NCBI RefSeq assembly: GCF_026241205.1
Contig: NZ_JAPFQM010000001.1
Coordinates: 1,488,001-1,552,000, forward strand
DNA length: 64,000 bases
Reading direction: 5' to 3'
Origin: Thermomicrobium sp. 4228-Ro
Lineage (GTDB): Bacteria > Chloroflexota > Chloroflexia > Thermomicrobiales > Thermomicrobiaceae
Of this stretch, positions 5,043 to 36,815 are shown one piece after another. Under the pieces are notes generated by a model. The model was not told the origin of the DNA and did not search any database. It saw only the letters and a list, made by a program, of their open reading frames with translations. Numbering within the stretch: the first letter of the stretch is position 1; the number at the start of each line of letters is the position of its first letter. The translations under genes and the position numbers were made by a program.

Positions 5043-7473
5043 GGCTCTTCTCGATCTCGTCGAGGGCGAGCCAGAACGCATCGCAGAGAGCGCGGAAGCG
5101 TTCGATCCACTCGTGGGCGGCCGGATCGCCGCGCTGTGCCTGCCACCGTTGCTTCGGAAGCTCGCGCTGGATCAGCTCGTAGGCGACGTTCTGGACGCGC
5201 CAGGTGTTCACTGGCTCGTGGAGATGGCTGGCCAGACGAACGAGTCCAGTGAGTATCTCGATCAGTTCCAGATCGTCCGGGCGGTCGTCCCATTCCTGCG
5301 CGAGGGACTCCATCGTCTCCTGTAATGCGTAGGCTAGCCCGGCGTGGTCGAGTTGCAGTTGCCACCGCTCGGCTTCCTCGAACAAGAGGGTGAGCGTCTC
5401 GAAAGGCGGCCGCGGCTCGCTCAACCGGCGACGCAGTTCGGCGTTCACCGTCACCTCGGCGGCGGTCAGGAACGCCCGGGGGATGGGGACGCCCAGATCG
5501 AGGAGGAAGCGCATCAGTGGCTGGCTGTCCTCGTAGAGATGACGATACAGGTCTTCTGCTTGGCTCAGTGTCGCGTTCAAGATGATCTCGAGCAGCTTCC
5601 GCTGCTCGTCCTTGAACAGCGAGCGTAGTGAATATTCCGCGCGCCCGAACGCTCGGTCGAAGGCCCGTACCGTTTCTGCGAGATCGGCGCGCGCGAACGG
5701 CTCGTTGAGGATGTCCCAGAGCTGCGCGAACCGCTCCGGTGTCCCGTCCGGTTCGACACCCCCGACCAGGTTGTGGTCACCGAGATGGAGGGCTGCACTG
5801 ATGAACGACTGGTTGCGGCCCGTCAGAGTGCAGGTTACGCGAACACGCGTGACGAAGAGGTGCGCGCGTCCGGCTCGTTGCGCTGTCCCTTCGAGCCGCT
5901 CGATTTCGAAGCAACCGATACTCGTTCGTTCCGGGTAGTCCTCGAAGAGCGCGCTCAAGCTGTAGTGCGCGGCCACGTTCGCGAGTTCGACGCGGGCCGG
6001 CCGGACGAGTCGCTCCCACACGCCGCGCCCATCGCGGTACTGCTGGATATTGCTCGGCGCCCGAGCGAGACGCTCGACGAACTCGTTCTCCAGCGAGGTT
6101 TCGGACAGCTCTTCGGCGATCTGGATGACTCGGGCAGCCGCCTGGAGTGCCTGGATCGTCTCGAGTCCAGAAAGTTCATCGAAGAACCAGGCGTCACTAC
6201 TGTACATGCGCAGGGCATACCGCTGCATTTCGAGCGCTTCGAGGACGCGTATCCGTTCCTCCGGCTCCAGTGCACGAGTTTGCCAGCGATCGAGGAAACG
6301 CCGCACGTTCTGCGGCGAGCGGTCGAGGATGACCTCGATGTAGTCGTCACGAGCAGCCCAAGGATCGCGGACGAGAGTGCTCAGCGCCCGCTCGTACAAG
6401 GCCGCGACGGCATCGCGGAGCCAATCGAGCGCTTCCCGCAATGGCCCACGCCACTCTTGCGTCCAACCAGGATGGGCTCCGGTGTTGCAGCCGCAGTTGC
6501 TCCGCCAGCGCTCGATACCGTGCGCGCAGCTCCAGGATGTCTGCTCGACGATCTGTGCCTCCCAGGTCGGCGGATGGGTCGCGAGGTACGAACCGTAGGT
6601 CACGACACGGGCGTCCGGCTCAGCCTGGAGCGCGGCGAGCGCGGCTGCGAGAGCCATATCGCCGAAGCGGTGGTGGTGGCCGTACGTTTCACCGTCGGTC
6701 GCGATATGCGCCAGCCGGTCAGTGGAGTCACTGGCTGCAGCGAGCAGGCGCGCGGCCAGAAGACGACCGTCGTTGAGGAGATCGCCGAAGGCGACGTCGC
6801 GAGACAACGGACCATCGTAGAAGAACACCACGATCGATCGACCGGACGGGAGTTGCACGCGGTAGGGTCGAGTCGGATCGACCCGTCCTCCCGAAACGTC
6901 CTGCCACCCACTGAATCCGGGGGCGCGCACGGCTGCAGCCTGGTGTGGCGCGAGGATAGTGAAGGCGATACCCATCTGCGCGATACGATCGAGCGTGGCC
7001 AGATCGACCGCGGTTTCCGGCAACCAGATGCCCTCTGGCCGGCGGCCGAAGCGGTACTCGAAATCGCGGATGCCCCACAAGAGTTCCGTGTGCCGGTCGC
7101 GCTCGTTGGCGAGCGGCAGAATGACATGGTGGTAGGGATGCGCGATAGCCGGGCCATGCCCGTCGAACCGTTCGCACCCTTCACGATCAGCGGCGAGGAT
7201 CGCGCGATAGACGTCAGGTGCTTCCTGCTCCAGCCAGCGGAGGAGCGTCGGGCCGAAATCGAAGCTGATCCAAGCATAGTTGTTCACGATCCGGATGATC
7301 CGGCCGCGCGCGTCGAGGATGCGCGACCAGGCATTCGGGCCGTAGCACTCCGCGGTGATCCGCTCGTTCCAGTCGTGGTACGGATAGGCGGAGTCTTCGA
7401 GTTCGACGACCTCCAGCCACGGGTTCTCCCGCGGCGGCTGGTAGAAGTGTCCGTGGATGCAGACATACTTCAC
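5029..7473 (-). CDS. Glycoside hydrolase family 57 protein (DUF3536 type)
   Basis: Predicted alpha-glucan-active enzyme (amylase or branching type) of about 814 residues. The GH57 N-terminal motif [13 protein letters not shown] is at residues 7-19, the predicted catalytic Glu (E153) lies in [10 protein letters not shown] and the predicted catalytic Asp (D259) in [11 protein letters not shown]. The rest is a long helical C-terminal region typical of the DUF3536 subgroup. I chose the GTG at 7473 because it begins the conserved domain and forms a GTGA overlap with the glgB stop. It is the last gene of the glucan operon. Exact specificity cannot be read from sequence; with glgB just upstream, trimming or remodelling of the polymer is the likely role. 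Confidence 0.9.
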
Positions 7474-9416
7474 GGTCGACTCCCGTCCGTGACTCTCTTG
7501 AAGATCACGATCGCGAGCGGTGGCAACGTCAAGGTCAACGACCAGGCTCGGCCGTGCCAGGGAACCGGTACGGCTTCCACGCCGCCGAGATTGCCCCAAC
7601 CACTTCCACCGTATTCGCGTGCATCGCTGTTCAGGAGTTCCCGCCAGAATCCCAGAGCGGGAACGCCGATGCGGTAGTTCTGTCTCGGTACCGGTGTGAA
7701 GTTGCAGACGACCAGAAGCTCCTCGCCAGGTCGGCGGCTCTTGCGGAGATACACCAGGACACTGTTTTCGGCGTCGTTGCAGTCGATCCACTCGAAACCT
7801 TCCGGGGAGCAATCGAGTTCGTACAGGGCTGGCTCGGAGCGAGCCAGGTGGTTGAGATCGGCCAGCCAGCGCCGCACGCCCTCGTGCGGAGGATACTGGA
7901 GCACGTGCCAGTCCAGGCTCCTATCGTGGTTCCATTCCCGCCATTGTGCGATTTCCGCACCCATGAAAAGGAGCTTCTTCCCAGGCTGCGTGTACTGGTA
8001 GCCGTAGAGAAGGCGAAGATTCGCGAATTTCTGCCAGTCGTCTCCGGGCATCTTGGCCAGGAGCGAGCCCTTCCCGTGGACGACCTCGTCGTGGGAGAGC
8101 GGCAACACGAAATTCTCGTTGAAGGCGTACAGAAGCCGGAAAGTCAGTTCGTTGTGATGGTACTTCCGATAGATCGGATCGCGGCTGAAGTAGCGCAACG
8201 TATCGTGCATCCAGCCCATGTCCCATTTGAGCCCGAAACCGAGGCCGCCCACGTAGGTGGGGCGCGAGACCATCGGCCAGGCGGTCGATTCCTCCGCGAT
8301 CGTCTGGACGTCGGGATGGTGCCGGTACACTTCCTCGTTCAGCCGCTGCAGGAAGGCGATCGCCTCCAGGTTCTCGCGACCGCCGTACTCGTTCGGGATC
8401 CACTCACCTGGTGCACGCGAGTAGTCGAGATAGAGCATGGAAGCGACCGCATCGACCCGAAGTCCGTCCGCGTGGTACCGGTCGAGCCAGAACATCGCGC
8501 TGGAGAGCAGGAAGGTACGGACTTCGTTCCGGCCGTAATTGAAAATCGCGGTGTGCCAGTCGGGATGGAAGCCTTTGCGCGGATCGGCATGCTCGTAGAG
8601 GTGCGTCCCGTCGAAGAAAACGAGACCATGCTCATCGGTCGGAAAGTGCGACGGAACCCAGTCCAAGATCACGCCGATCCCATGCTGGTGGAGCGTGTCG
8701 ATCAAGAACATGAAGTCCTGCGGGGCACCATAGCGTGCCGTCGGCGCGAAGTATCCCGTGACTTGGTAGCCCCAGGATCCGTAGAAGGGATGTTCCATGA
8801 CCGGCAGGAACTCGACGTGCGTGAACCCCATCCGTTGCACGTGCTCGGCCAGCTTGGGGGCGATTTCTCGATAGGTGAGCCAGCGGTTCCCCTCTTCCGG
8901 AACGCGCATCCAGGAACCGAGGTGCACTTCGTACAGCTGCATCGGTGCGTCCAGCGCGTTGGCACGGGCGCGCTGTCGCATCCAGTCGGCGTCTGCCCAC
9001 TCGTAGGTCAAGTTCCAGACGATAGAAGCCGTACCGGGTGGACATTCATGCCGGGCACCGTACGGGTCTGCCTTGAAAACTTGATATCCGTTCAAGCGTG
9101 ACACGATGTGGTACTTGTACCGGGCACCGACTCCGAGGCCCGGAACGAACCCTTCCCAGATCCCCGACGACCCGCGTGGTGCCAGCAGATGTTTACCGGG
9201 TGTCCAGTCGTTGAAGTCCCCGACCACCGAAACCCGCTCGGCGTTGGGAGCCCACACGGCGAAGTAGACGCCCTCCTCACCCTCGAGCACGCACGGATGA
9301 GCCCCCATCTTCTCGTACGCCCTGAGCCAGGTGCCTTCGTTGAAGAGATACACGTCGTGATCGGTGAGGAGCGATCGGTCATGACGAACCGGGCCGACTC
9401 GCCACGTCGTCGTCAC
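7470..9416 (-). CDS. glgB: 1,4-alpha-glucan branching enzyme GlgB
   Basis: Transfers glucan segments to create alpha-1,6 branches. About 648 residues, with a CBM48 domain ([21 protein letters not shown] near residue 50) followed by a GH13 catalytic barrel. The catalytic residues are seen in [12 protein letters not shown] (nucleophile Asp), [10 protein letters not shown] (acid/base Glu) and [15 protein letters not shown] (Asp), which is the GlgB pattern. The GTG at 9416 is chosen because it forms a GTGA overlap with the malQ stop. It lacks the extra N-terminal domain of some GlgB proteins. In the GlgE pathway it acts on the linear chains made by GlgE. Confidence 0.95.
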
Positions 9417-11431: not shown

Positions 11432-14400
11432 GTCCCTTCCTGAGCCCGGAGAAGTTCGAGCACGCCGCGCAAGGGAATCGCGAGCCAGTCGGGGCGGTGC
11501 CCGAGTTCGTAGCGGATCTCGTAGATCGCTTTGTCCATGAGATACGCCTCGAGCAGAATGGCGAGCTGCGCCGGGTCGCTGGGCAGCAGCGGCGTGCCAG
11601 TGAGCTCGTGCAGGTATCCCTGCAGGAAGACCGCTGCGACCCAGCCGTACCAGAACCGGAGCCAACCCTCTGCCCGGGCGACGTCGGGGAGCAGGCCGCG
11701 TTCGTGCTGCTCGAGCAAGGTCGTCGAGGCAGCGTAGTGGAACGAGCGGAGCATTCCGGCCACGTCGAGGATGGGCGAACGCTTGAGTCGTCGCTCGCTG
11801 AGCGGTCGGGCTGGCTCCCCCTCGAAGTCGATGAGGACGAAGTCGCGGCCGGTATAGAGCACCTGCCCGAGATGGTAGTCACCGTGACAACGCGTGCGTT
11901 GGGCAGGGAGCAGCCCATGCAAGAGCCGCTGGTACACGTGTACGATTCCGCGCTCTCGCTCGAGCACTGCCTCGGCATCGCGACGAACGGCTTCCGGCAA
12001 CTGCTCGAGCTGATTACGGAGCTGGCCGAGCGTCTGGAGGAGCTGGCTGCGCATCGCCTGGTACAGCGAGCGTTGGTAGAGCATCGAGAACGGCTCGGGC
12101 GCGAACGCGGGATCATCCGTCAAGCTGGCGAGTGCCCGGTGCAACTGGGCCGTGCGCTGGCCGAGGAGATGCGCCGCTTCGACATACGTGTCGATCAGCT
12201 CGTAGGCCACCTCCGGTGGCGTCTCCTGGGCGCGTGCCAGCAGTGACGCGGCATCGAGGGCGAGGCGAGGTGGCTCCTCGCCGTGCGCGAGAGCACGTTC
12301 GAGGAAGCCGGTCAGTTCGTCGAGCGTGTACTGCCAGGTGTCGCCCTCGTTCGGCACGTAACCGACCAGCACTCCCAGGGTCATCGTCTCGCCCTGATGG
12401 GACTGATACTCGAGGCTGCCGGCCAGTGGTGGCACGTGTGGGAAGCCGAGCCGTTCGCTCAACGCCCGCTCCATCTCGAGTTCTGGGTTCGGTCCCGGCT
12501 CCACGCGCCGGTAGAGTTTGAACAGCACACGCTCCGGGAAGATTACCGAGGTATTGCTCTGCTCGGCGCGACCGAGTACCGGCTCGGGGAGCTGAGCCGC
12601 GGGCCCGAGCAGGCGTCTGTAGGCACTGGTCGGAGACGCGAGAATCGTTCCGCCTTGTCCCCGGAAGCGGCGCCGTCGACCGATCGCTTCGACGAGCCCA
12701 CGCACGAAATCGGGGACGGCGAGCGCATCGACGAGCAGCGCTTCCTCGCCACCCGGCATCCCGCGCGCGATCACCGCGTGCGGTGTCCGCTCGATGGTCT
12801 GTTCGGCTCGGTCACCACGAACGAGCGCGAGAGGCAGCACGTACAGGTCTGGATCGCCTTCGGTGTACTCGACCTGAACGAGCGTGAACAGTGCCGACTG
12901 GCCGTCGATTGCGATCGGTACCTGTTCGGTCACACGCACCTGCTTGACGCGGCGTGCTTTGCCAGCGAACCAGCGTCGTGCGCGCAGGTAACGTGGCAGG
13001 TGGCTTTCCAAGGCCCGCTGCGCGCTCCCGAGCTCGATCAGGCCGTCCCGCTCGCGAACGGGGACCATCGGCAACTCGCTGGTCGTGATGACGAGTGGCT
13101 CTTCACCGGCGCGCGGGCGCTCCAGGCTGAACCAGTAGAAGCTGTGTGGCCCGAGCGTGATACGATACGGCTCCTCGCCGATCATCGGGAACTCGACGCG
13201 ACCGAAGAGCTCGACTGGGATGAGTCCGCGGTAGGCGGCCAGGTCGAGTTCGGCCCACTGGACGAAGCGGGAGAGGTTGGCGACGACGAGAATCGTTTCC
13301 TGCTCGTAGCGCCGGACGTAGGCGAGCACTTTTCGGTTCTCGACCGGGATCAGCTCGAAACTGCCGCGCCCGAAGGCCTTGAACTGCTTGCGCAGTGCGA
13401 TGAGGCGCTTCATCCACCAGAGCAACGAGTGCGGGTTGGCTTGTTGCGCCTCGACGTTGACCGCCTCGTAGTGGTACTCGGCATCGACGATGACCGGGAG
13501 GTACAGGCGCTGCCGCGGAGCGGTCGAAAAGCCGGCGTTACGGTCAGCACTCCACTGCATCGGCGTGCGCACCCCGTTGCGGTCGCCGAGGTACACGTTG
13601 TCGCCCATCCCGATCTCGTCACCGTAATAGATCACGGGGGTACCGGGGAGCGAGAACAGCAACCCGTTCATCAGCTCGATCCGGCGCCGGTTGTTGCCGA
13701 GCAGTGGCGCCAGGCGCCGGCGAATGCCGAGGTTGATCCGGGCGACCGGGTCACGGGCGTAGACCCGGTACATGTAGTCGCGCTCTTCGTCGGTCACCAT
13801 TTCGAGCGTGAGCTCGTCGTGGTTGCGCAAGAAGAGGGCCCACTGGGCCGTTTCCGGAATCGGCGGTGTTTGCGAGAGGATATCGACGATCGGGAAGCGG
13901 TCTTCCATGCGGATGGCCATGAAGAGTCGCGGCATCAGCGGAAAGTGAAAGGCCATGTGGCACTCGTCACCGTCACCGAAGTAGGCGACGGCATCTTCCG
14001 GCCACTGATTCGCCTCGGCCAGCAGCATGCGGTTCCGGTAGCGGCTGTCGACGTAGCGGCGGAGTTCCTTGAGGAACGCGTGGGTTTCCGGCAGGTTCTC
14101 GCAGTTCGTCCCCTCTCGCTCGTAGAGATAGGGCACCGCATCCAACCTCATCCCGTCGACGCCCAGCCGCATCCAGAAGTCGACGACGCGGAGGATAGCG
14201 CGGCGGACGGCTGGGTTGTCGTAGTTGAGGTCCGGTTGATGCGAATAGAACCGGTGCCAGTAGTAGGCTTTGGCGATCGGATCCCAGGCCCAGTTCGACG
14301 TCTCGAAGTCCTTGAAGATGATGCGTGCTTCCTTGTACTTCTCTGGGGTGTCGCTCCAGACGTAAAAGTTCCGCCAGACGCTGCCCGGGGCGGCCCGACG

Positions 14401-22916: not shown

Positions 22917-23062
22917 TACGCTTTCAGGCTCGCGCCTGCGCTGTGGTGACCGCATCATGTAGAGTAAACAGCATGTGAGCGGCCGTATCCGGCGTTGGAA
23001 CGGTGCTGGATTTGCGTGACCGCTCGGAGGCAGCGCACCGGAGACTGGCGAGGGGGCCGAGC

Positions 23063-24637
<1,575 letters not shown>

Positions 24638-25071
24638 GATTCGTGAACCGAACGGTTCCCACGGGGACGGCTCACGCAGCTGCGGGGTCTGTATCTTCTG
24701 TCGCCCGAACAGGAGGTCGACGGAGCCTGGTCGCCTGCGAGCAGCTTGGAGGGCTGCGAAGATCGGCTTGGTGATCAGCAAAACGGCCACGGGTGGCCTG
24801 GCCGGCTCGGCGCCCTTCTGCAGCAGCGTGAGGAGGGGCTGAAAAGCGCGTGGTGACGCGCATGTTCGGCTCGTCGAAGCCGTGCTGTGGGAGACGGTTG
24901 CAGCGTCGACTTCCGGTCGTGCAGGAACCCCGGGGGGGTCGACGGATTCCCGTTGTGTCACTGCCGTGTTGTCAGGGCCGCCGGAAGAGAATTCCCCAAG
25001 CGCTTGCGCTCGTGTGCTTCCTGCGGTATGCTGGTGATGAGAGAAGCGCGTTGCGACGCCGAGCTGCTTGG
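24638..25071 (+). other. CRISPR leader and intergenic region
   Basis: A 434-base region between the mutase gene and the first repeat with no supported gene. The last part should be the leader, because the opposite end of the array carries the degenerate repeat and the repeat ends in a CTTGAAAC handle on this strand. A perfect palindrome, CAAGCGCTTG, lies at 24997-25006 and overlaps the -35 of the predicted leader promoter. Confidence 0.7.
25004..25032 (+). promoter_or_regulatory. Predicted CRISPR leader promoter
   Basis: TTGCGC at 25004-25009 and TATGCT at 25027-25032 are 17 bases apart, placing transcription start near 25039, about 33 bases before the first repeat. The same two hexamers with the same spacing occur in front of mraZ (42409-42437), which supports it as a real promoter form in this genome. 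Confidence 0.55.
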
Positions 25072-28000
25072 GTTTTGGCAGTACCTATGAGGGCTTGAAA
25101 CTAACTGCGTCATCGAACCGTCTGATCGAATCCTGAGTGGTTTTGGCAGTACCTATGAGGGCTTGAAACCGGCCGTGAGCGACTGTCGCAATTACCAGGC
25201 GTACGTGGGTTTTGGCAGTACCTATGAGGGCTTGAAACCGCTCAGCCAGATGCCGAAACGATTAGACGACGGTGAGGTTTTGGCAGTACCTATGAGGGCT
25301 TGAAACTCGTGTCGCAGCTGCGTGACGCCGGTCGATCCGGCCTCGTTTTGGCAGTACCTATGAGGGCTTGAAACCTGACGTCTGAGTGCCTGCGGCCAGA
25401 CGCTGTTGCGTGTCGTTTTGGCAGTACCTATGAGGGCTTGAAACAGGAGAGGGGGTAGCGGTGCCCGTCCGACCGCTCGGTTTTGGCAGTACCTATGAGG
25501 GCTTGAAACAGGGGCGGTTCGATGAACGCGCGCTCTTCGGGCCGCGTTTTGGCAGTACCTATGAGGGCTTGAAACCTCGCAGTCTTGTCTCAATGTCGTA
25601 CACTGATCGACGTTTTGGCAGTACCTATGAGGGCTTGAAACAGGAAGGCGTGCTGTACATCGTGTCGACGATCGCGGGTTTTGGCAGTACCTATGAGGGC
25701 TTGAAACCGGCACGCTCGCCCGCTTCTGCCCGGGCTTGCCTGGTTTTGGCAGTACCTATGAGGGCTTGAAACGCACCTCCTCTTCCTCCTCTCTCTCGGC
25801 CAGCCGGGGTTTTGGCAGTACCTATGAGGGCTTGAAACCCTGGACCCGGCGCGACCTTCCGCGTCGTGGGCTGGGTTTTGGCAGTACCTATGAGGGCTTG
25901 AAACCACGCTCGTCAACGTGAGCCCCGAGACAGAGAACCACTGTTTTGGCAGTACCTATGAGGGCTTGAAACCCGCCTCCCCTGCGGGCGTCAGTACGCG
26001 AACACCTTGTTTTGGCAGTACCTATGAGGGCTTGAAACTATCATATTGACCATACCTAGAACAATATTCACAGTGTTTTGGCAGTACCTATGAGGGCTTG
26101 AAACTCCCCTCAACTCACCTTCGCTCTAGATTTCCTCATACGCGTTTTGGCAGTACCTATGAGGGCTTGAAACGAATCAGCCTCGTCGCCTCGAGTCGCG
26201 AGAAAACTGGTTTTGGCAGTACCTATGAGGGCTTGAAACGGAGACACGAGAAGCGGCCGCCCGGTGGGTGACCGGGTGTTTTGGCAGTACCTATGAGGGC
26301 TTGAAACGACGGTCGGTGCCTATCTCGAGCAGTGGTTCGACGCGTTTTGGCAGTACCTATGAGGGCTTGAAACTCAAGGGGGAAACGCCGAGTAGCCGGA
26401 GCACCGCGGTTTTGGCAGTACCTATGAGGGCTTGAAACGGATAGTGTCACCGGCGAGGGGGCGGGCCCCTCGCGGGTTTTGGCAGTACCTATGAGGGCTT
26501 GAAACTGGCGTCTGGTGGGGAGCAGTGGTGCGCAGGATGGCGTTTTGGCAGTACCTATGAGGGCTTGAAACCCGAGACCGGATCATGACGATCGGATACC
26601 CGATATGTTTTGGCAGTACCTATGAGGGCTTGAAACACGTCGTAGGCGTAGACGCCAGAGAAGATGCCGTTCGTTTTGGCAGTACCTATGAGGGCTTGAA
26701 ACTGCGCGAACACGGCCGGCGCGACGTCGACCGAAATCGTTTTGGCAGTACCTATGAGGGCTTGAAACGCCGAGTCGCGCGTCCGGTGTCGGCATCGTGA
26801 GCGCGCGTTTTGGCAGTACCTATGAGGGCTTGAAACATCGGTCGACCAAACGCTTGTGCGATCGGGCAACGGTTTTGGCAGTACCTATGAGGGCTTGAAA
26901 CGTCGACGCCTTCGGTGTCGACGGGCCAGTAGTCGGGCGTTTTGGCAGTACCTATGAGGGCTTGAAACTCTGCGTCCACGCGAGTATCGTGATACTGGCC
27001 TGCGCGTTTTGGCAGTACCTATGAGGGCTTGAAACAGTGGTAAGTGGAGGTGAGTGATGAACGTGAACGATGTTTTGGCAGTACCTATGAGGGCTTGAAA
27101 CCGTTCTCGTCAAGAGCAACGTCGCGTTTCCCGTCGGTTTTGGCAGTACCTATGAGGGCTTGAAACCTGCTGCCTGCCTCCGCGCGCGGGTAGTACTCAT
27201 GGGCGTTTTGGCAGTACCTATGAGGGCTTGAAACGCGGAGTTCCAGGGGCGAGAGTGCCACCAGGGGTCGTTTTGGCAGTACCTATGAGGGCTTGAAACT
27301 GTACCGCTTTCCGTGCCATCGTGATCCCTCCTTTCGTTTTGGCAGTACCTATGAGGGCTTGAAACTGATGACGGTCGGTTGTGGTTAGTGGCCGGAAGGG
27401 GTTTTGGCAGTACCTATGAGGGCTTGAAACATCGCGCTGCGACTCGGAGTACCTCGTCATCTACTGTTTTGGCAGTACCTATGAGGGCTTGAAACCCGGA
27501 CGGCGTGATCGTCGCCTTCGACGACGTCGTCCGTTTTGGCAGTACCTATGAGGGCTTGAAACTGTGGCCAACTATCGACTAAAACCTCGAGACCCTTCGT
27601 GTTTTGGCAGTACCTATGAGGGCTTGAAACCGCCGCAGCCAGCGGAAGAGCCAGCGCCGCACCACACGCGTTTTGGCAGTACCTATGAGGGCTTGAAACA
27701 TTGTCGCCTCGAATAACGGAATCGATTGACTCGCGTTTTGGCAGTACCTATGAGGGCTTGAAACCAGCCGTTCCCGGTCGGCGAGGGCGGCGAGGGCGGG
27801 TTTTGGCAGTACCTATGAGGGCTTGAAACTACGATCGTGTTGAGGACTTGCACCGTTCTCTCGAGTTTTGGCAGTACCTATGAGGGCTTGAAACTTCATC
27901 AACGAAGACTGTGGCGGGAATTGGTCTGAAGTTTTGGCAGTACCTATGAGGGCTTGAAACTGAGTCGCACTCGAACTCGCACTCGGAGTCGGACTCGTTT

Positions 28001-31000
28001 TGGCAGTACCTATGAGGGCTTGAAACCACCTGCACCTGCCCGGCCTTCCGCTACTACTCCCGGTTTTGGCAGTACCTATGAGGGCTTGAAACCATTTCCG
28101 AGTACGTAAAACCTGATATGAGCGGCAGAGTTTTGGCAGTACCTATGAGGGCTTGAAACTAGGATACGTTCTCTCGTTCGCGAAGATTTCCCTGTGTTTT
28201 GGCAGTACCTATGAGGGCTTGAAACCGGGCAGCTGGTGATCGAGCAGCTGGTCTGGACTATGGGTTTTGGCAGTACCTATGAGGGCTTGAAACGAATGTC
28301 GTACTGTCCGTTTCTATCACAGTATTCAGTTTTGGCAGTACCTATGAGGGCTTGAAACCATTCGTGCCTTCGAAATACCTCATCATATTCAACTCGTTTT
28401 GGCAGTACCTATGAGGGCTTGAAACTCGGTTCGCCTCCGGGCCAGTCGCCCCGGCGAGAGGTTTTGGCAGTACCTATGAGGGCTTGAAACGCATACTAAC
28501 ACAACTGTGTCCGTCACGCAACCACTGTTTTGGCAGTACCTATGAGGGCTTGAAACGCGCGTTACGGCGTCGACCCCTGGGTGCACTACGTCGTTTTGGC
28601 AGTACCTATGAGGGCTTGAAACATGCCACCGCGACGGCATCGGGATTCATGAGTGCAGGTTTTGGCAGTACCTATGAGGGCTTGAAACGCCGACGTCGAG
28701 CCGGAGGCGCTCTATCCGGACTGGCAGTTTTGGCAGTACCTATGAGGGCTTGAAACTCCACCACAAGGGACACTCCACCCAGTCGCAGGGTCGTTTTGGC
28801 AGTACCTATGAGGGCTTGAAACCGAGTCAACGCGTCAAGCTTACCCATCACGACCCCCGTTTTGGCAGTACCTATGAGGGCTTGAAACTCCGTTTCCTAA
28901 CACGATCATAACACGATAGCAACTGGTTTTGGCAGTACCTATGAGGGCTTGAAACTCCGGGAAAGTCGAAAAGGTCGAGCGGGCAGAGCCGGTTTTGGCA
29001 GTACCTATGAGGGCTTGAAACTTCGGCGTCGGCGACAGCCGGCCGATCACCTGGCAGTGTTTTGGCAGTACCTATGAGGGCTTGAAACGTGAGTCAGCAC
29101 ACGATATTCGCGACACTCACTACAGTGTTTTGGCAGTACCTATGAGGGCTTGAAACTCGCCGATCCCGGCACTGACTTTCCGGATCCGGAAGTTTTGGCA
29201 GTACCTATGAGGGCTTGAAACTCGCGTCCGTCACCGTCCTGATCGTCCTCCGCCAGACAGTTTTGGCAGTACCTATGAGGGCTTGAAACAGCAGCAACCG
29301 CTCCCGACCGAGGACGTCGAAGCGGTTTTGGCAGTACCTATGAGGGCTTGAAACCGTACTCCACGTGATCGCGTGCGACTGGCGACCGTCGCGTTTTGGC
29401 AGTACCTATGAGGGCTTGAAACCGTTCGGAAGTGTCAGAGACAGTGAGGGCAGCAGCGTCGTTTTGGCAGTACCTATGAGGGCTTGAAACTCTGGCTCCT
29501 GGCGATCTGAGGCGATCGAGTACGCCTCGGTTTTGGCAGTACCTATGAGGGCTTGAAACATCGACGCGTGACGGTAGCGGAAGGGGTTAGGCAACTGTTT
29601 TGGCAGTACCTATGAGGGCTTGAAACCTGCGATATGAATGTGTCCACCGCAGGCTACTGTGTGTTTTGGCAGTACCTATGAGGGCTTGAAACACTCCGTC
29701 TCGCGCACGTCCGCGGTCAGGCCGCCGCGGGTTTTGGCAGTACCTATGAGGGCTTGAAACTCCCCGTTGTCTCTGCTACTTCGAACCCATCACCCCGTTT
29801 TGGCAGTACCTATGAGGGCTTGAAACGTTCGTACGGCGAGTCTCGGACAGATGTGCGGAACGCGTTTTGGCAGTACCTATGAGGGCTTGAAACTCCGTCA
29901 CCTGGCTTCAAGCGCCCTCCAGAGTCTCCTCGTTTTGGCAGTACCTATGAGGGCTTGAAACCCGCGTCCGCTTCCGCGGTGGCCTGACCGTGGACGGTTT
30001 TGGCAGTACCTATGAGGGCTTGAAACCGGCGCATAACCGACCGGTATGACCGACGAGACACCGTTTTGGCAGTACCTATGAGGGCTTGAAACCCTCGCTC
30101 GCCAGGATAGCGACGCGCCACGAGAGCGGTTTTGGCAGTACCTATGAGGGCTTGAAACTACGGATAACCCCTCGACAACTATCACCACTACACCAAGAGT
30201 TTTGGCAGTACCTATGAGGGCTTGAAACTTCCGGTGGCGAGCGCTGCAGATGAGCCGCCTTCTCGTTTTGGCAGTACCTATGAGGGCTTGAAACTGTTTT
30301 TCGATTATGCCCCGAGTCCGGAAGCGAAGTGTTTTGGCAGTACCTATGAGGGCTTGAAACAAGCCCTCGCTCCTCTCGTTCTTGACGGTCACCGTGTTTT
30401 GGCAGTACCTATGAGGGCTTGAAACTCGTACTCGTGGTCTTCCTGGTGCAGACCATCGTCGGGTTTTGGCAGTACCTATGAGGGCTTGAAACGAAGATCA
30501 GGCGACTCATAGGATACCGCGCGTGACGTTTTGGCAGTACCTATGAGGGCTTGAAACCCGGCCGTTCGTTCGGCCAGCCAACCGAACAATAGGGTTTTGG
30601 CAGTACCTATGAGGGCTTGAAACCGCACAGTCGTTCGCAACGCGACACTCGCGCGCGGGTTTTGGCAGTACCTATGAGGGCTTGAAACCGCGACTCGTTC
30701 TTGCGAGTCGCGCCCGGCCTGCTCGTTTTGGCAGTACCTATGAGGGCTTGAAACAAAGTCCAGCGCCCGGTACAGCGCCCCGGCGCCAACGTTTTGGCAG
30801 TACCTATGAGGGCTTGAAACGATGTACAAGTGGAATAGGATCGATCTCGATCTGACTGTTTTGGCAGTACCTATGAGGGCTTGAAACAATGTGCCCCCAC
30901 AAGCAACCGACCAACCCGCTGCTGTTTTGGCAGTACCTATGAGGGCTTGAAACGGAGGTACCTCCGGACGAGGAGCGTGCCGATGCCGAGTTTTGGCAGT

Positions 31001-31546
31001 ACCTATGAGGGCTTGAAACCACGTCGCTCACGGTGCCAGCGAAGAGTGCTGGCGGGTTTTGGCAGTACCTATGAGGGCTTGAAACGGGCTCCGGTCCCTG
31101 GATGTGTGGAAACCCGTGCAAGGTTTTGGCAGTACCTATGAGGGCTTGAAACAAGGACAGCCTCCCGACCATTGTGCCGCTCCTGGTCAGTTTTGGCAGT
31201 ACCTATGAGGGCTTGAAACGTTTTGGCAGAGTGAGTCCGTTTATAGCTCGAACGAGTTTTGGCAGTACCTATGAGGGCTTGAAACATCCCGTCCCAGATA
31301 CTCGAGGCGAACGACTTGATCGTTTTGGCAGTACCTATGAGGGCTTGAAACTGATAGTGGTGTCGGACGGTACGGAGTAGTGGTGAGTTTTGGCAGTACC
31401 TATGAGGGCTTGAAACCAGGTTTCCGACGACGACGAGACGCAGCATCCTAGGTTTTGGCAGTACCTATGAGGGCTTGAAACGCAGCACGACGACGTCGAT
31501 GCAGCGGTCCGACGGTGTTTTGGCAGTACCAATGCGGTCCTGAAGC
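25072..31546 (+). CRISPR. CRISPR array, 98 repeats (97 identical plus one degenerate)
   Basis: A 30-base repeat beginning GTTTTGGCAGTACC and ending GGGCTTGAAAC recurs about every 65-70 bases. By my count there are 98 copies, from 25072-25101 to 31517-31546, with 97 spacers of about 35-40 bases. All copies look identical except the last, which has five changes (T15A, A19C, G22T, T24C, A29G). The degenerate end and the CTTGAAAC 3' end, which would give a type I/III-like 5' crRNA handle, both put the leader on the low-coordinate side and transcription on the plus strand. No cas gene is present in the 64 kb. Open frames within the array are artefacts of the repeat. Confidence 0.99.
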
Positions 31547-31864
31547 GGTTGTGTGCCTCTTGGGTCGGTACGCTCAGTGTGTTTCGCTGTCTCGCGTTCT
31601 GCGTGCGAATTTACACAGGGCTGATCAGGCTCGAAACGACGATGGACGAGAAGAAGGCACTGGCCGAGAACGATTCTCGGGAGCTCCTCTGACTCTCGAA
31701 ACGACCCTGTACCGTCTGTATACTGGCCCAGGCACGCCGACTCCTGCTGTGTCCGTGTCGCGCGATAAAACGAGGCGAAGACTGCGCTTGCCCGCTTGTC
31801 CTTGCGGCCAGCGTCCCGTATCGTTCGTTGGTGGCGCACCGGCGTGAAAGGTACGTGTAGACCT
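31547..31864 (+). other. Intergenic region between CRISPR array and PotD-like gene
   Basis: A 318-base stretch without a supported gene. TATACT at 31719-31724, preceded by CTG, is a likely -10 for the lipoprotein gene, although no -35 is clear and the leader would be about 130 bases. Two short matches to the repeat end (CTCGAAAC at 31630-31637 and 31695-31702) are 65 bases apart but the rest does not match. Confidence 0.45.
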
Positions 31865-33040
31865 ATGCGAACCACCTGGCTCACGCGACGCTCTTTCTTG
31901 GCCACACTGGCGCTCGCCGGGTCCGCATTGCTCCAGGCCTGTCGAGGCCGGGGATCGACGGCGCCCACGGTAACCTCCGCCGCTTCCCCGACGCCGGCTG
32001 CGGCGGGTCCCACGGTCGTGACCAGCACGCTCGAGCTGCCACCGTACATCGACCGCAGTCGGCTGGAGAGCGAGCTGTTCGTCTTCAACTGGGGCGACTA
32101 CATCGATCCCGATGTGCTCGCCGATTTCGAGCGCTTGACCAGCGTGAAGGTGACGATCGATACCTACGAGACGAACGAGCAGGCGATCGCCAAGCTCCAG
32201 CAAGGGGGCCTCGGCTACGATATCGTGGTGCCGACCGATTATGCGGTGCAGATCGCGATCGGACTCGGTCTGCTCCAGGAGCTCGACCGCTCGGTGATCC
32301 GCGCGATCGAGCATCTCGATCCGAACAACCTGAACGGCCCTTTCGATCCCGGGAACCGGTACAGCGTGCCGTACTTCTGGGGGACGTCCGGTTACGCGTA
32401 CGATACTGCGGTCCTCGGTGACGGTCTCACCAGCTGGCGGGCGCTCTTCGAGCCCGCCGAGGCTGCCCGGGGCAAGCTGGTCATGCACGGGTACTACCGG
32501 GAGACGATCGCTGCGGCCTTGCTCTGGCTCGGCTACCCGCTCAACGAGACGAGCGACGAGGCCCTGCAACGTGCGCTCGCGGTGCTGAAGGCGCAGAAGC
32601 CGTACGTCCTCTCCTACACCAGCGAGAACAACGACGAGCTTCTCGTCGCGGGCGAGGCGGTGATCGCGCACTGCTGGACCGGCCAAGCGATCCTGGCCAA
32701 GCGGGAGAAGCCGACGATCCGCTACGTCATTCCTGCGGAAGGGTGCGCCGTCTGGCAGGACAACCTCTGCGTCGTCAAGGACGCCCCGCATCCCTACGCG
32801 GCCATGGTGTTCATCGATTTCCTCTGCTGGCCGGAGATCGCGGCCCGCAACGCCACCTACGTCGGGTACGCGAGCCCCAACCGCACGGCTCGAGAACGCG
32901 GTCTGCTCGATCCTGACCTCGTCGATGATCCGGCGATCTACTTGGACGACACGACCTGGCGTCGGCTGCAGTGGTTCCGTGACCTCGGGCCGGACTACGT
33001 GAAGTACGACCGTATCTGGACGGAGCTGCAGGCGGGCTGA
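31865..33040 (+). CDS. PotD-like polyamine-type ABC transporter substrate-binding lipoprotein
   Basis: Extracytoplasmic binding protein of 391 residues, class of spermidine/putrescine receptors. The N-terminus has a twin-arginine pair ([14 protein letters not shown]) and a lipobox ending LLQAC, so it is probably exported by Tat and lipidated at the Cys. A Ser/Thr/Pro/Ala linker leads to the binding domain, with [46 protein letters not shown] and EDNLCV-like positions typical of the family. No permease or ATPase gene lies next to it; it stands alone between the CRISPR array and dnaJ. Polyamine binding is inferred from the family only. Confidence 0.88.
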
Positions 33041-33202
33041 CCGTGCTCGCCACCGGCTCGTCAACGGGACAGGAGACCCGGTCAGCGCTTGCCGGAACCG
33101 GTGCGCTTGGCCCCGTCGGCGGACCGTGCCGATCGATCGACCTCGCGGGGCCGAGGCTGGTCGCGTCCTCGCGCGTGACCCGGCGGGACGCGATCGGGAC
33201 CT

Positions 33203-33211
33203 TGCTATACT
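33203..33211 (+). promoter_or_regulatory. Extended -10 element TGCTATACT upstream of dnaJ
   Basis: TGC plus TATACT (33206-33211) lies 53 bases before the dnaJ start. It is identical to the element before the epimerase gene. No -35 and no CIRCE-type inverted repeat are visible, so HrcA control is not supported. Confidence 0.55.
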
Positions 33212-33263
33212 CCATATCAGACCTGGCGGGTGCGGGTGTCGCCCGATGAGCAGGGGTGCGCGG

Positions 33264-34400
33264 ATGAGCACGAAGCGCGACTACTACGAGGTGCTCGGTG
33301 TCAGCCGGACGGCGAGCCAAGAGGAAATCCGACGTGCCTATCGCCGGCTGGCTCGCCAGTATCACCCGGACGTCAACAAGTCGCCGGACGCTGAGGAGAA
33401 GTTCAAGGAGATCAACGAAGCCTACGAAGTCCTGAGCGATCCCGAGAAGCGGGCAGCCTACGATCGCTTCGGTCATGCGGGTGTCCAGGTCGGGGCTGGT
33501 GCCGGAGCGGGGCCGAGTGCCGATCCGTTCGGTTTCGGCTCGCTCTTCACCGACCTGTTCGACTCGTTTTTCGGCGACATGACCGGCACCGCCCGCCGCA
33601 GGCCAGCCCGTGGCGCCGACCTCGAAGTGACGCTCGAGCTCGAGTTCGAGGAGGCCCTGCGCGGCGTCGAGAAGGAGCTCGAGATCGAGCGGCTCGAGGT
33701 CTGCCCGGACTGCCGCGGCACGCGCGTGCGCCACGGTGCGAAGCCGACGACCTGCCCGGTCTGCGGAGGCACGGGCCAGATCCGGCGCTACCAGCAGACG
33801 ATCCTCGGTGCGATGATCACGGCGACGACCTGCAGTCACTGCGGCGGCGAGGGGCGCGTGGTCTCGGATCCCTGTCCCACCTGCCGGGGGCGCGGGCGCA
33901 CGGTGCGGCGCCGCACGGTGCGGCTGGAGATTCCGGCTGGGATCGAGGACGGCGCGACCTTGCGGCTGACCGGCGAGGGGGAGCACGGGGAGCCGGGCGC
34001 CCCGCCGGGGAACCTGTATGTCCACGTGCGCGTGCGCCCACACGAACTCTTCCGGCGGGAGGGCTCGACGCTCTATCTCGACGTACCAGTCAACGTGGCG
34101 CAGGCTGCGCTCGGTGCCGAGGTGGAAGTCCCGACGGTCGACGGGCCGGTCGTGCTGACGATCCCACCGGGTACGCAGCCCGGCCAGCGTTTCCGGCTGC
34201 GCGGGAAGGGGGCGCCGGAACTCGGCAGTGGCCGGCGCGGAGACCTCATCGTGACCGTGCGCGTGGTGGTGCCGACCGAGCTCACGCCGCGCCAGCGCGA
34301 GCTCTTCGAGGAACTGGCTGAGTCGCTCGAGCGGCCGGACGTGCGCGAAGCGCACCGCAAGGGGCTCTTCGAGCGGATCAAGGAAGTGCTCGGCGTCTGA
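33264..34400 (+). CDS. dnaJ: Chaperone protein DnaJ
   Basis: Hsp40 co-chaperone that stimulates DnaK ATPase. The 378 residues contain a J-domain with YHPDVNK (HPD near residue 33), a Gly/Phe region with [16 protein letters not shown], four zinc motifs ([32 protein letters not shown]) and two C-terminal substrate-binding domains. ATG 33264 has AGGGG eight bases upstream and starts just before the J-domain; ATG 33246 is an alternative. It is not next to dnaK or grpE, so it may be one of several DnaJ copies. Confidence 0.94.
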
Positions 34401-36738: not shown

Positions 36739-36809
36739 TGGCGGGTGGTGAAACGGTATCACAGGGGCCTTTGGAGTCCTTGTTCCAGGTTCGAATCCTG
36801 GCCCGCCAG
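36739..36809 (+). tRNA. tRNA-Gln (TTG anticodon)
   Basis: A full cloverleaf can be drawn: acceptor TGGCGGG with CCCGCCA, D-arm GTG/CAC, anticodon arm GGGGC-CTTTGGA-GTCCT giving anticodon TTG, and T-arm CCAGG-TTCGAAT-CCTGG. The discriminator is G at 36809. CCA is not encoded. The T-U1/A72-type first pair and anticodon both fit glutamine. Confidence 0.95.
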
Positions 36810-36815
36810 CCGGGT

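What the first reader, a model, noticed from the sequence alone, without database searches (positions are those of the whole stretch)
25072..31546. Very long CRISPR array (98 repeats) with no cas genes in 64 kb
Counting repeat starts gives 98 copies and 97 spacers, with all but the last repeat apparently identical. Conservation across 6.5 kb suggests recent activity, yet no cas gene lies within 25 kb on the left or 32 kb on the right. The effector must act in trans from another locus or replicon. The repeat's CTTGAAAC end resembles the handle of type I-B/III systems.
Basis: partly seen in the sequence, partly recalled or inferred. Interest (0 to 1): 0.68.

Follow-up and report, generated by a model that had tools for sequence, protein, structure and literature searches.

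The report
Distant array of chromosomal type I-B CRISPR
This is a real, very long store of virus memories that lies about 104 kb from the immune genes that most likely use it; the missing genes are elsewhere on the same chromosome, so it is an unusually large but ordinary kind of CRISPR array.

Summary
The array is real: window 25072-31546, 98 repeats (97 identical, last with 5 changes), 97 unique spacers, no cas gene in 64 kb. It is not an orphan. The same contig carries a complete type I-B operon (cas6-cas8b-cas7-cas5-cas3-cas4/cas1-cas2), whose nearest end is 104 kb left of the array and 79 kb outside the window. Beside that operon lies a sister array whose repeat differs at 2 of 30 bases. 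Four lines tie the window array to it: near-identical repeats with the same 3' 23 bases; a shared leader (41-base palindrome-ended element plus a TTG-17-TATACT-type promoter) that in 8 Thermomicrobiaceae genomes occurs only upstream of these repeats; spacers drawn from the same viruses; and a common 5'-NTR flank (PAM) recovered from overlapping spacers. The only other cas locus found with Cas1 as marker, type III-A on a second large contig, has an unrelated repeat and its own Cas6, Cas1 and Cas2. Fragments from two related species show array junctions at the same chromosomal sites; three others have a different gene order in which these junctions are reshuffled. In all, the genome holds 573 repeats and at least 569 spacers. 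Known kind; notable for size and for the phased leader element.

The parts
24904..24944 (+). Leader-distal element, CGTCGACTTCCGGTCGTGCAGGAACCCCGGGGGGGTCGACG: 41 bases with inverted-repeat ends (CGTCGAC...GTCGACG), 127 bases upstream of the first repeat
   Evidence: Found by comparison with the leader of the cas-adjacent array (38/43 identical); 15 copies in 8 Thermomicrobiaceae genomes, all 15 upstream of repeats of this family at 137-142 nt from the 27-nt core; in this genome only 2 copies, at the two array leaders
25004..25009 (+). Putative -35 hexamer TTGCGC of the pre-crRNA promoter
   Evidence: TTG conserved in 15 of 15 leaders, always 17 bases from the -10; below the strict consensus threshold of the generic scan
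25027..25032 (+). Putative -10 hexamer TATGCT of the pre-crRNA promoter, ending 39 bases before the first repeat
   Evidence: TATACT or a variant in 15 of 15 leaders, ending 37-40 nt before the first repeat
25072..31546 (+). CRISPR array: 98 repeats of 30 bases, 97 spacers of 35-40 bases; leader on the left
31517..31546 (+). Degenerate last repeat (5 mismatches) marking the trailer end, so the leader is on the left

Best explanation
[quoted passage not shown] Shown: a complete I-B operon and a sister array with a 28/30-identical repeat lie on the same contig, about 104 kb to the left, and the two arrays share a phased leader. Inferred: transcription starts at the leader promoter about 30 nt before the first repeat and runs rightwards; the I-B Cas6 made in trans cuts the transcript inside each repeat, leaving the 8-nt CTTGAAAC 5' handle; Cascade (Cas8b-Cas7-Cas5) uses the crRNAs to find DNA next to a 5'-NTR PAM and recruits Cas3; and Cas4/Cas1-Cas2 adds new spacers at the left end, guided by the shared leader. 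Cas proteins diffuse, so 104 kb is no obstacle. In other species of the genus the gene order around the cas operon differs, and arrays lie at the edges of the rearranged blocks, so the distance to cas probably reflects chromosome rearrangement, not loss of cas genes.
For: Complete I-B operon at C1:1400338-1409388 by PADLOC and NCBIfam: Cas6b, Cas8b/Csh1, Cas7/Csh2, Cas5b, Cas3, Cas4-Cas1b fusion, Cas2b. Sister array at C1:1417701-1425934, repeat GTTTCGACAGTACCTATGAGGGCTTGAAAC, 2 differences, both in the first 7 bases. Shared leader element and promoter. Spacers of the window array match spacers of the other arrays with few or no changes, e.g. window spacers 49, 57 and 71 against contig C3, so all arrays sample the same viruses. 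The 5' flanks of protospacers rebuilt from overlapping spacers are NTR in 20 of 28 against 7.7% expected (binomial p about 1e-16, flanks not fully independent), and in 1 of 33 on the 3' side; the two usable window spacers both fit. Relative G014, with 281 such repeats, has a single Cas1 locus, next to its arrays. HRbin27 and SKW109 contigs show repeats of this family at the same chromosomal junctions.
Against: No expression, processing or interference was measured. No protospacer was found in phage or plasmid records or in four spacer-pattern scans of IMG/VR. The A and B repeats differ at two bases, so one Cas6 handling both is inferred; the predicted fold of the window repeat is weak (-3.4 kcal/mol, no better than shuffles). 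Only 2 window spacers contribute to the PAM test. Two contigs made entirely of this repeat family (C3, C4) are unplaced.
Confidence: 0.9

Rival explanations
1. The array is served mainly by the type III-A system on the 907-kb contig (probably the megaplasmid), or shared between I-B and III-A.
For: A complete III-A locus exists (Cas10, Csm2-5, two Csx1/Csm6-like proteins, Cas6, Cas2, Cas1) at C6:892281-906838. Sharing of I-B arrays with type III effectors is widespread (PMC8482600).
Against: The III-A locus has its own short array with an unrelated repeat (core CAATCCCCTTCAGGGGATTGCA) and its own Cas6, Cas1 and Cas2. The common NTR flank and the shared leader fit type I-B adaptation. Relative G014 keeps this repeat family with a single Cas1 locus, beside its arrays.
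Confidence: 0.1
2. The array is a silent relic: an archive cut off from its cas operon that is no longer transcribed or extended.
For: 104 kb from the nearest cas gene; in G014 and G016 the array next to the cas operon lies within a few kb of it; no matching virus found.
Against: 97 identical repeats with no decay, degeneration only at the trailer end, intact leader element and promoter spacing as in 14 other leaders, spacers from viruses also sampled by the other arrays, and array junctions at the same sites in fragments of two relatives.
Confidence: 0.07
3. A tandem-repeat or assembly artefact.
For: Two other contigs (C3, C4) consist only of this repeat family and end exactly at spacer/repeat boundaries, so assembly around these arrays is not perfect.
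Against: 97 distinct spacers with exact 30-base repeats in a 2.05-Mb contig; the right junction is also present in HRbin27 and the left junction in SKW109, which are independent assemblies.
Confidence: 0.02

Closest known systems
Distant (non-orphan) CRISPR arrays that share a repeat family with a remote cas locus (surveyed in PMC12814883)
   Same: Array over 10 kb from its cas locus, same repeat family as the cas-adjacent array, different spacers; [quoted passage not shown]
   Different: Long (97 spacers) and about 104 kb away; repeats of the two arrays differ at 2 bases rather than being identical
Type I-B CRISPR-Cas (Cas8b/Csh1, Cas7/Csh2) arrays
   Same: 30-nt repeat ending TTGAAAC, 35-40-nt spacers, full I-B operon in the genome, PAM on the 5' side; TTG and TTA are among listed I-B PAMs (PMC8482600)
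   Different: Cas4 and Cas1 are fused here; inferred PAM NTR (mostly CTG/CTA) is not among the I-B entries of that list
Csa3a-bound leader-distal motif of Sulfolobus islandicus type I-A (PMC9456107)
   Same: A leader-distal DNA motif at a fixed place well upstream of the first repeat (-143 to -94 there; -168 to -128 here), separate from the leader-repeat junction
   Different: Different domain of life, subtype and sequence; no Csa3-like protein was looked for and no binding partner is known here
Haliangium ochraceum CRISPR arrays (587, 189 and 36 spacers; PMC8047081, PMC7145573)
   Same: Very large total spacer load in a bacterium
   Different: There one array reached 587 spacers; here at least 569 spacers are spread over two located arrays and two unplaced contigs

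Membership tests
CRISPR array | Identical direct repeats separated by unique spacers of similar length | tested here: met
   97 identical 30-mers, 97 unique spacers of 35-40 nt
CRISPR array | Leader at one end, degenerate repeat at the other | tested here: met
   Conserved leader element and promoter on the left; 5-mismatch repeat on the right
Type I-B CRISPR-Cas | Complete I-B effector and adaptation genes in the genome | tested here: met
   Cas6, Cas8b, Cas7/Csh2, Cas5b, Cas3, Cas4-Cas1b, Cas2 at C1:1400338-1409388. NCBIfam Csh1 and Cas5b matches fall below curated cut-offs; Csh2 and Cas1b exceed theirs
Type I-B CRISPR-Cas | Repeat matches that of the array next to the I-B operon | tested here: met
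   28 of 30 bases identical, the last 23 all identical
Type I-B CRISPR-Cas | Leader shared with the cas-adjacent array | tested here: met
   38/43 identical block at the same distance; promoter spacing the same
Type I-B CRISPR-Cas | 5' protospacer-adjacent motif | tested here: met
   NTR in 20 of 28 rebuilt 5' flanks, 1 of 33 3' flanks, all arrays pooled; 2 of 2 for the window array. Inferred from spacer overlaps, not from virus genomes
Type I-B CRISPR-Cas | crRNAs with an 8-nt CTTGAAAC handle made by the I-B Cas6 | not testable with these tools
   Needs small-RNA sequencing
Orphan CRISPR array (no cas locus in the genome) | No cas genes anywhere in the genome | tested here: not met
   Two Cas1 loci in the genome
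Type III-A array | Repeat shared with the III-A locus | tested here: not met
   The array at the III-A locus has an unrelated repeat core, CAATCCCCTTCAGGGGATTGCA

The most novel reading that the evidence does not exclude
The 41-base palindrome-ended leader element is the docking site of a so far unknown DNA-binding factor that marks I-B arrays for spacer uptake or for transcription wherever they lie in the chromosome, a bacterial counterpart of the archaeal Csa3a leader-distal site, and it is what keeps a 97-spacer array active 104 kb from its cas genes.
Probability: 0.4. Interest if true: 0.5.

Novelty: new member of a known kind. Interest (0 to 1): 0.33.

Why it matters
It shows that a very long array far from cas genes need not be an orphan: repeat, leader and PAM place it in a named system. 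The genome is one of the heavier bacterial CRISPR loads (at least 569 spacers against 50 or fewer in most bacteria, PMC7145573), and two arrays of one system with distinguishable repeats make a natural test of whether distance from cas genes affects spacer uptake. The phased leader element, found in the genomes searched only upstream of these arrays, gives a concrete sequence to test for binding and for adaptation.

Tried and rejected
Blast of the whole array against phage and plasmid collections: only chance-level or repeat-driven matches. Four spacer-core scans and one repeat scan of IMG/VR: nothing. First idea that the distance to cas arose only in this lineage: rejected, because HRbin27 and SKW109 fragments share three of the four array junctions each, so the genus has two gene orders and the older one is not known. 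Idea that C3 and C4 are alternative versions of arrays A and B: not supported by shared blocks of spacers (one exact shared spacer between C3 and B); their place is open. Generic promoter scan found nothing at the leader; the promoter rests on conservation across 15 leaders. Repeat folding was uninformative.

Full report
Observation. The array is exactly as described: 98 repeats at 25072-31546, 97 of them identical, the last with 5 mismatches, and 97 unique spacers of 35-40 nt. No cas gene is in the window: 47 predicted proteins gave no Cas match in PADLOC and both Cas1 loci of the genome lie outside. The neighbours are a methylmalonyl-CoA mutase gene on the left (23003-24637) and a solute-binding protein gene (31796-33040) and dnaJ (33126-34400) on the right.

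Where the cas genes are. The window is C1:1488001-1552000 of a 3.07-Mb, 99.9% complete genome. Its two large contigs of 2.05 and 0.91 Mb resemble the 2.01-Mb chromosome and 0.92-Mb megaplasmid of Thermomicrobium roseum (PMC2615216), and repeats of this family occur in named Thermomicrobiaceae genomes; the genus name is therefore inferred. A complete type I-B operon lies at C1:1400338-1409388: cas6, cas8b, cas7, cas5, cas3, a cas4-cas1 fusion and cas2. Its cas2 end is 103.7 kb from the first repeat of the window array and 78.6 kb outside the window. The second Cas1 locus is a type III-A system near the end of the 907-kb contig, with Cas10, Csm2 to Csm5, two Csx1/Csm6-like proteins, Cas6, Cas2 and Cas1, and a short array with an unrelated repeat.

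One repeat family, four places. Array B, 8.3 kb right of the I-B operon (C1:1417701-1425934), has 125 repeats GTTTCGACAGTACCTATGAGGGCTTGAAAC, differing from the window repeat at positions 5 and 7. Contig C3 (15.5 kb, 234 repeats, nearly all of the B type) and contig C4 (7.7 kb, 116 repeats, nearly all of the window type) consist wholly of array and are unplaced. In total there are 573 repeats and 569 complete spacers, 558 of them different. For comparison, the longest single array listed in CRISPRCasdb had 587 spacers, and most bacterial genomes have 50 or fewer in all (PMC7145573).

Shared leader. Comparing the leaders of the window array and array B gave one conserved block of 43 nt (38 identical). 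Its core, allowing 2 mismatches, occurs 15 times in 8 of 21 genomes of the family, and all 15 lie 137-142 nt upstream of a repeat of this family; this genome has 2 copies, at arrays A and B. The block is CGTCGAC...GTCGACG-ended, with 9-11 of 12 arm positions complementary. Mean information over its first 28 nt is 1.64 bits per column against 0.32 in the 60 nt upstream. Downstream of it all 15 leaders have TTG, exactly 17 nt, and TATACT or a variant, ending 37-40 nt before the first repeat; I read this as the pre-crRNA promoter (inference). The element lies upstream of that promoter, so it should act as DNA, as an activator site or as an adaptation site; the archaeal Csa3a leader-distal motif is a working precedent for both (PMC9456107). 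Because C3 and C4 carry no leader and only two leaders were found, they may be inner parts of arrays A and B, or leaderless arrays in gaps; this is not settled.

Shared targets and PAM. 99 spacers fall into 45 groups of near-identical or overlapping sequences, many across arrays; 8 of these groups are an eight-spacer block copied within C3. Of 48 same-strand pairs, 32 have the same 5' start (this count includes copied pairs), as expected if the 5' end is set by a PAM. Overlaps reveal bases next to other spacers' protospacers: after removing low-complexity groups and taking one flank per spacer, the 5' flank is NTR in 20 of 28 (expected 7.7%), the 3' flank in 1 of 33; hits are spread over all four arrays, with 2 of 2 for the window array. 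Some flanks come in reciprocal pairs, so the p-value is indicative. TTG and TTA are listed I-B PAMs (PMC8482600). No real protospacer was found.

Gene order. In G014 (HRbin28), G016 and G019 the stretch right of the cas operon (up to our C1:1417199) is followed after about 0.9 kb by dnaJ (our C1:1521199); here array B, about 87 kb and array A lie between them. In G014 and G016 the long array next to the cas operon is on its other side, between cas6 and our C1:1444947, and G014 has a second array, of the window's repeat type, beyond our C1:1529012, 16 kb from cas2. HRbin27 contigs show repeats at B-left, B-right and A-right, and SKW109 contigs at B-left, B-right and A-left (the repeat positions are). 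So there are two gene orders in the genus, arrays lie at the edges of the rearranged blocks, and the direction of change is unknown. Recombination between arrays is a plausible cause but is not shown.

Verdict. Known kind: a distant array of a type I-B system in the same chromosome. Shown by sequence: operon, repeat family, leader, flank motif, junctions. Inferred: transcription, Cas6 processing, interference, spacer uptake.

Noticed in passing
L013 (contig C3), about 7397-7986 and 12873-13466: An eight-spacer block is present twice, with one differing spacer position inside it: a segmental duplication within an array.
   Followed up: partly
L013 at 2109, 10497, 10563, 10758; L024 at 1641: Single repeats of the other allele (and one hybrid, GTTTCGGCAG...) sit inside arrays of the opposite repeat type, as if A-type and B-type arrays had exchanged units.
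   Followed up: no
L013 and L024 (contigs C3 and C4): Two contigs made entirely of array, 15.5 and 7.7 kb, begin and end exactly at a spacer edge and have no leader or trailer; their place in the genome is unknown.
   Followed up: partly
L021 7281-19820 and L022 (C6:892281-906838): Complete type III-A locus at the end of the 907-kb contig with two adjacent Csx1/Csm6-like CARF-HEPN proteins.
   Followed up: partly
window 31220-31255: One spacer begins with GTTTTGGCAG, the first ten bases of the repeat, directly after a full repeat; chance or a partial repeat copy.
   Followed up: no
window 36739-36811: tRNA-Gln (TTG), the only RNA gene found in the window.
   Followed up: no
C1:1407472-1409055 and C6:905807-906649: The I-B Cas1 is fused to Cas4; the III-A Cas1 also lies in a 553-aa open frame, longer than Cas1 alone.
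   Followed up: partly
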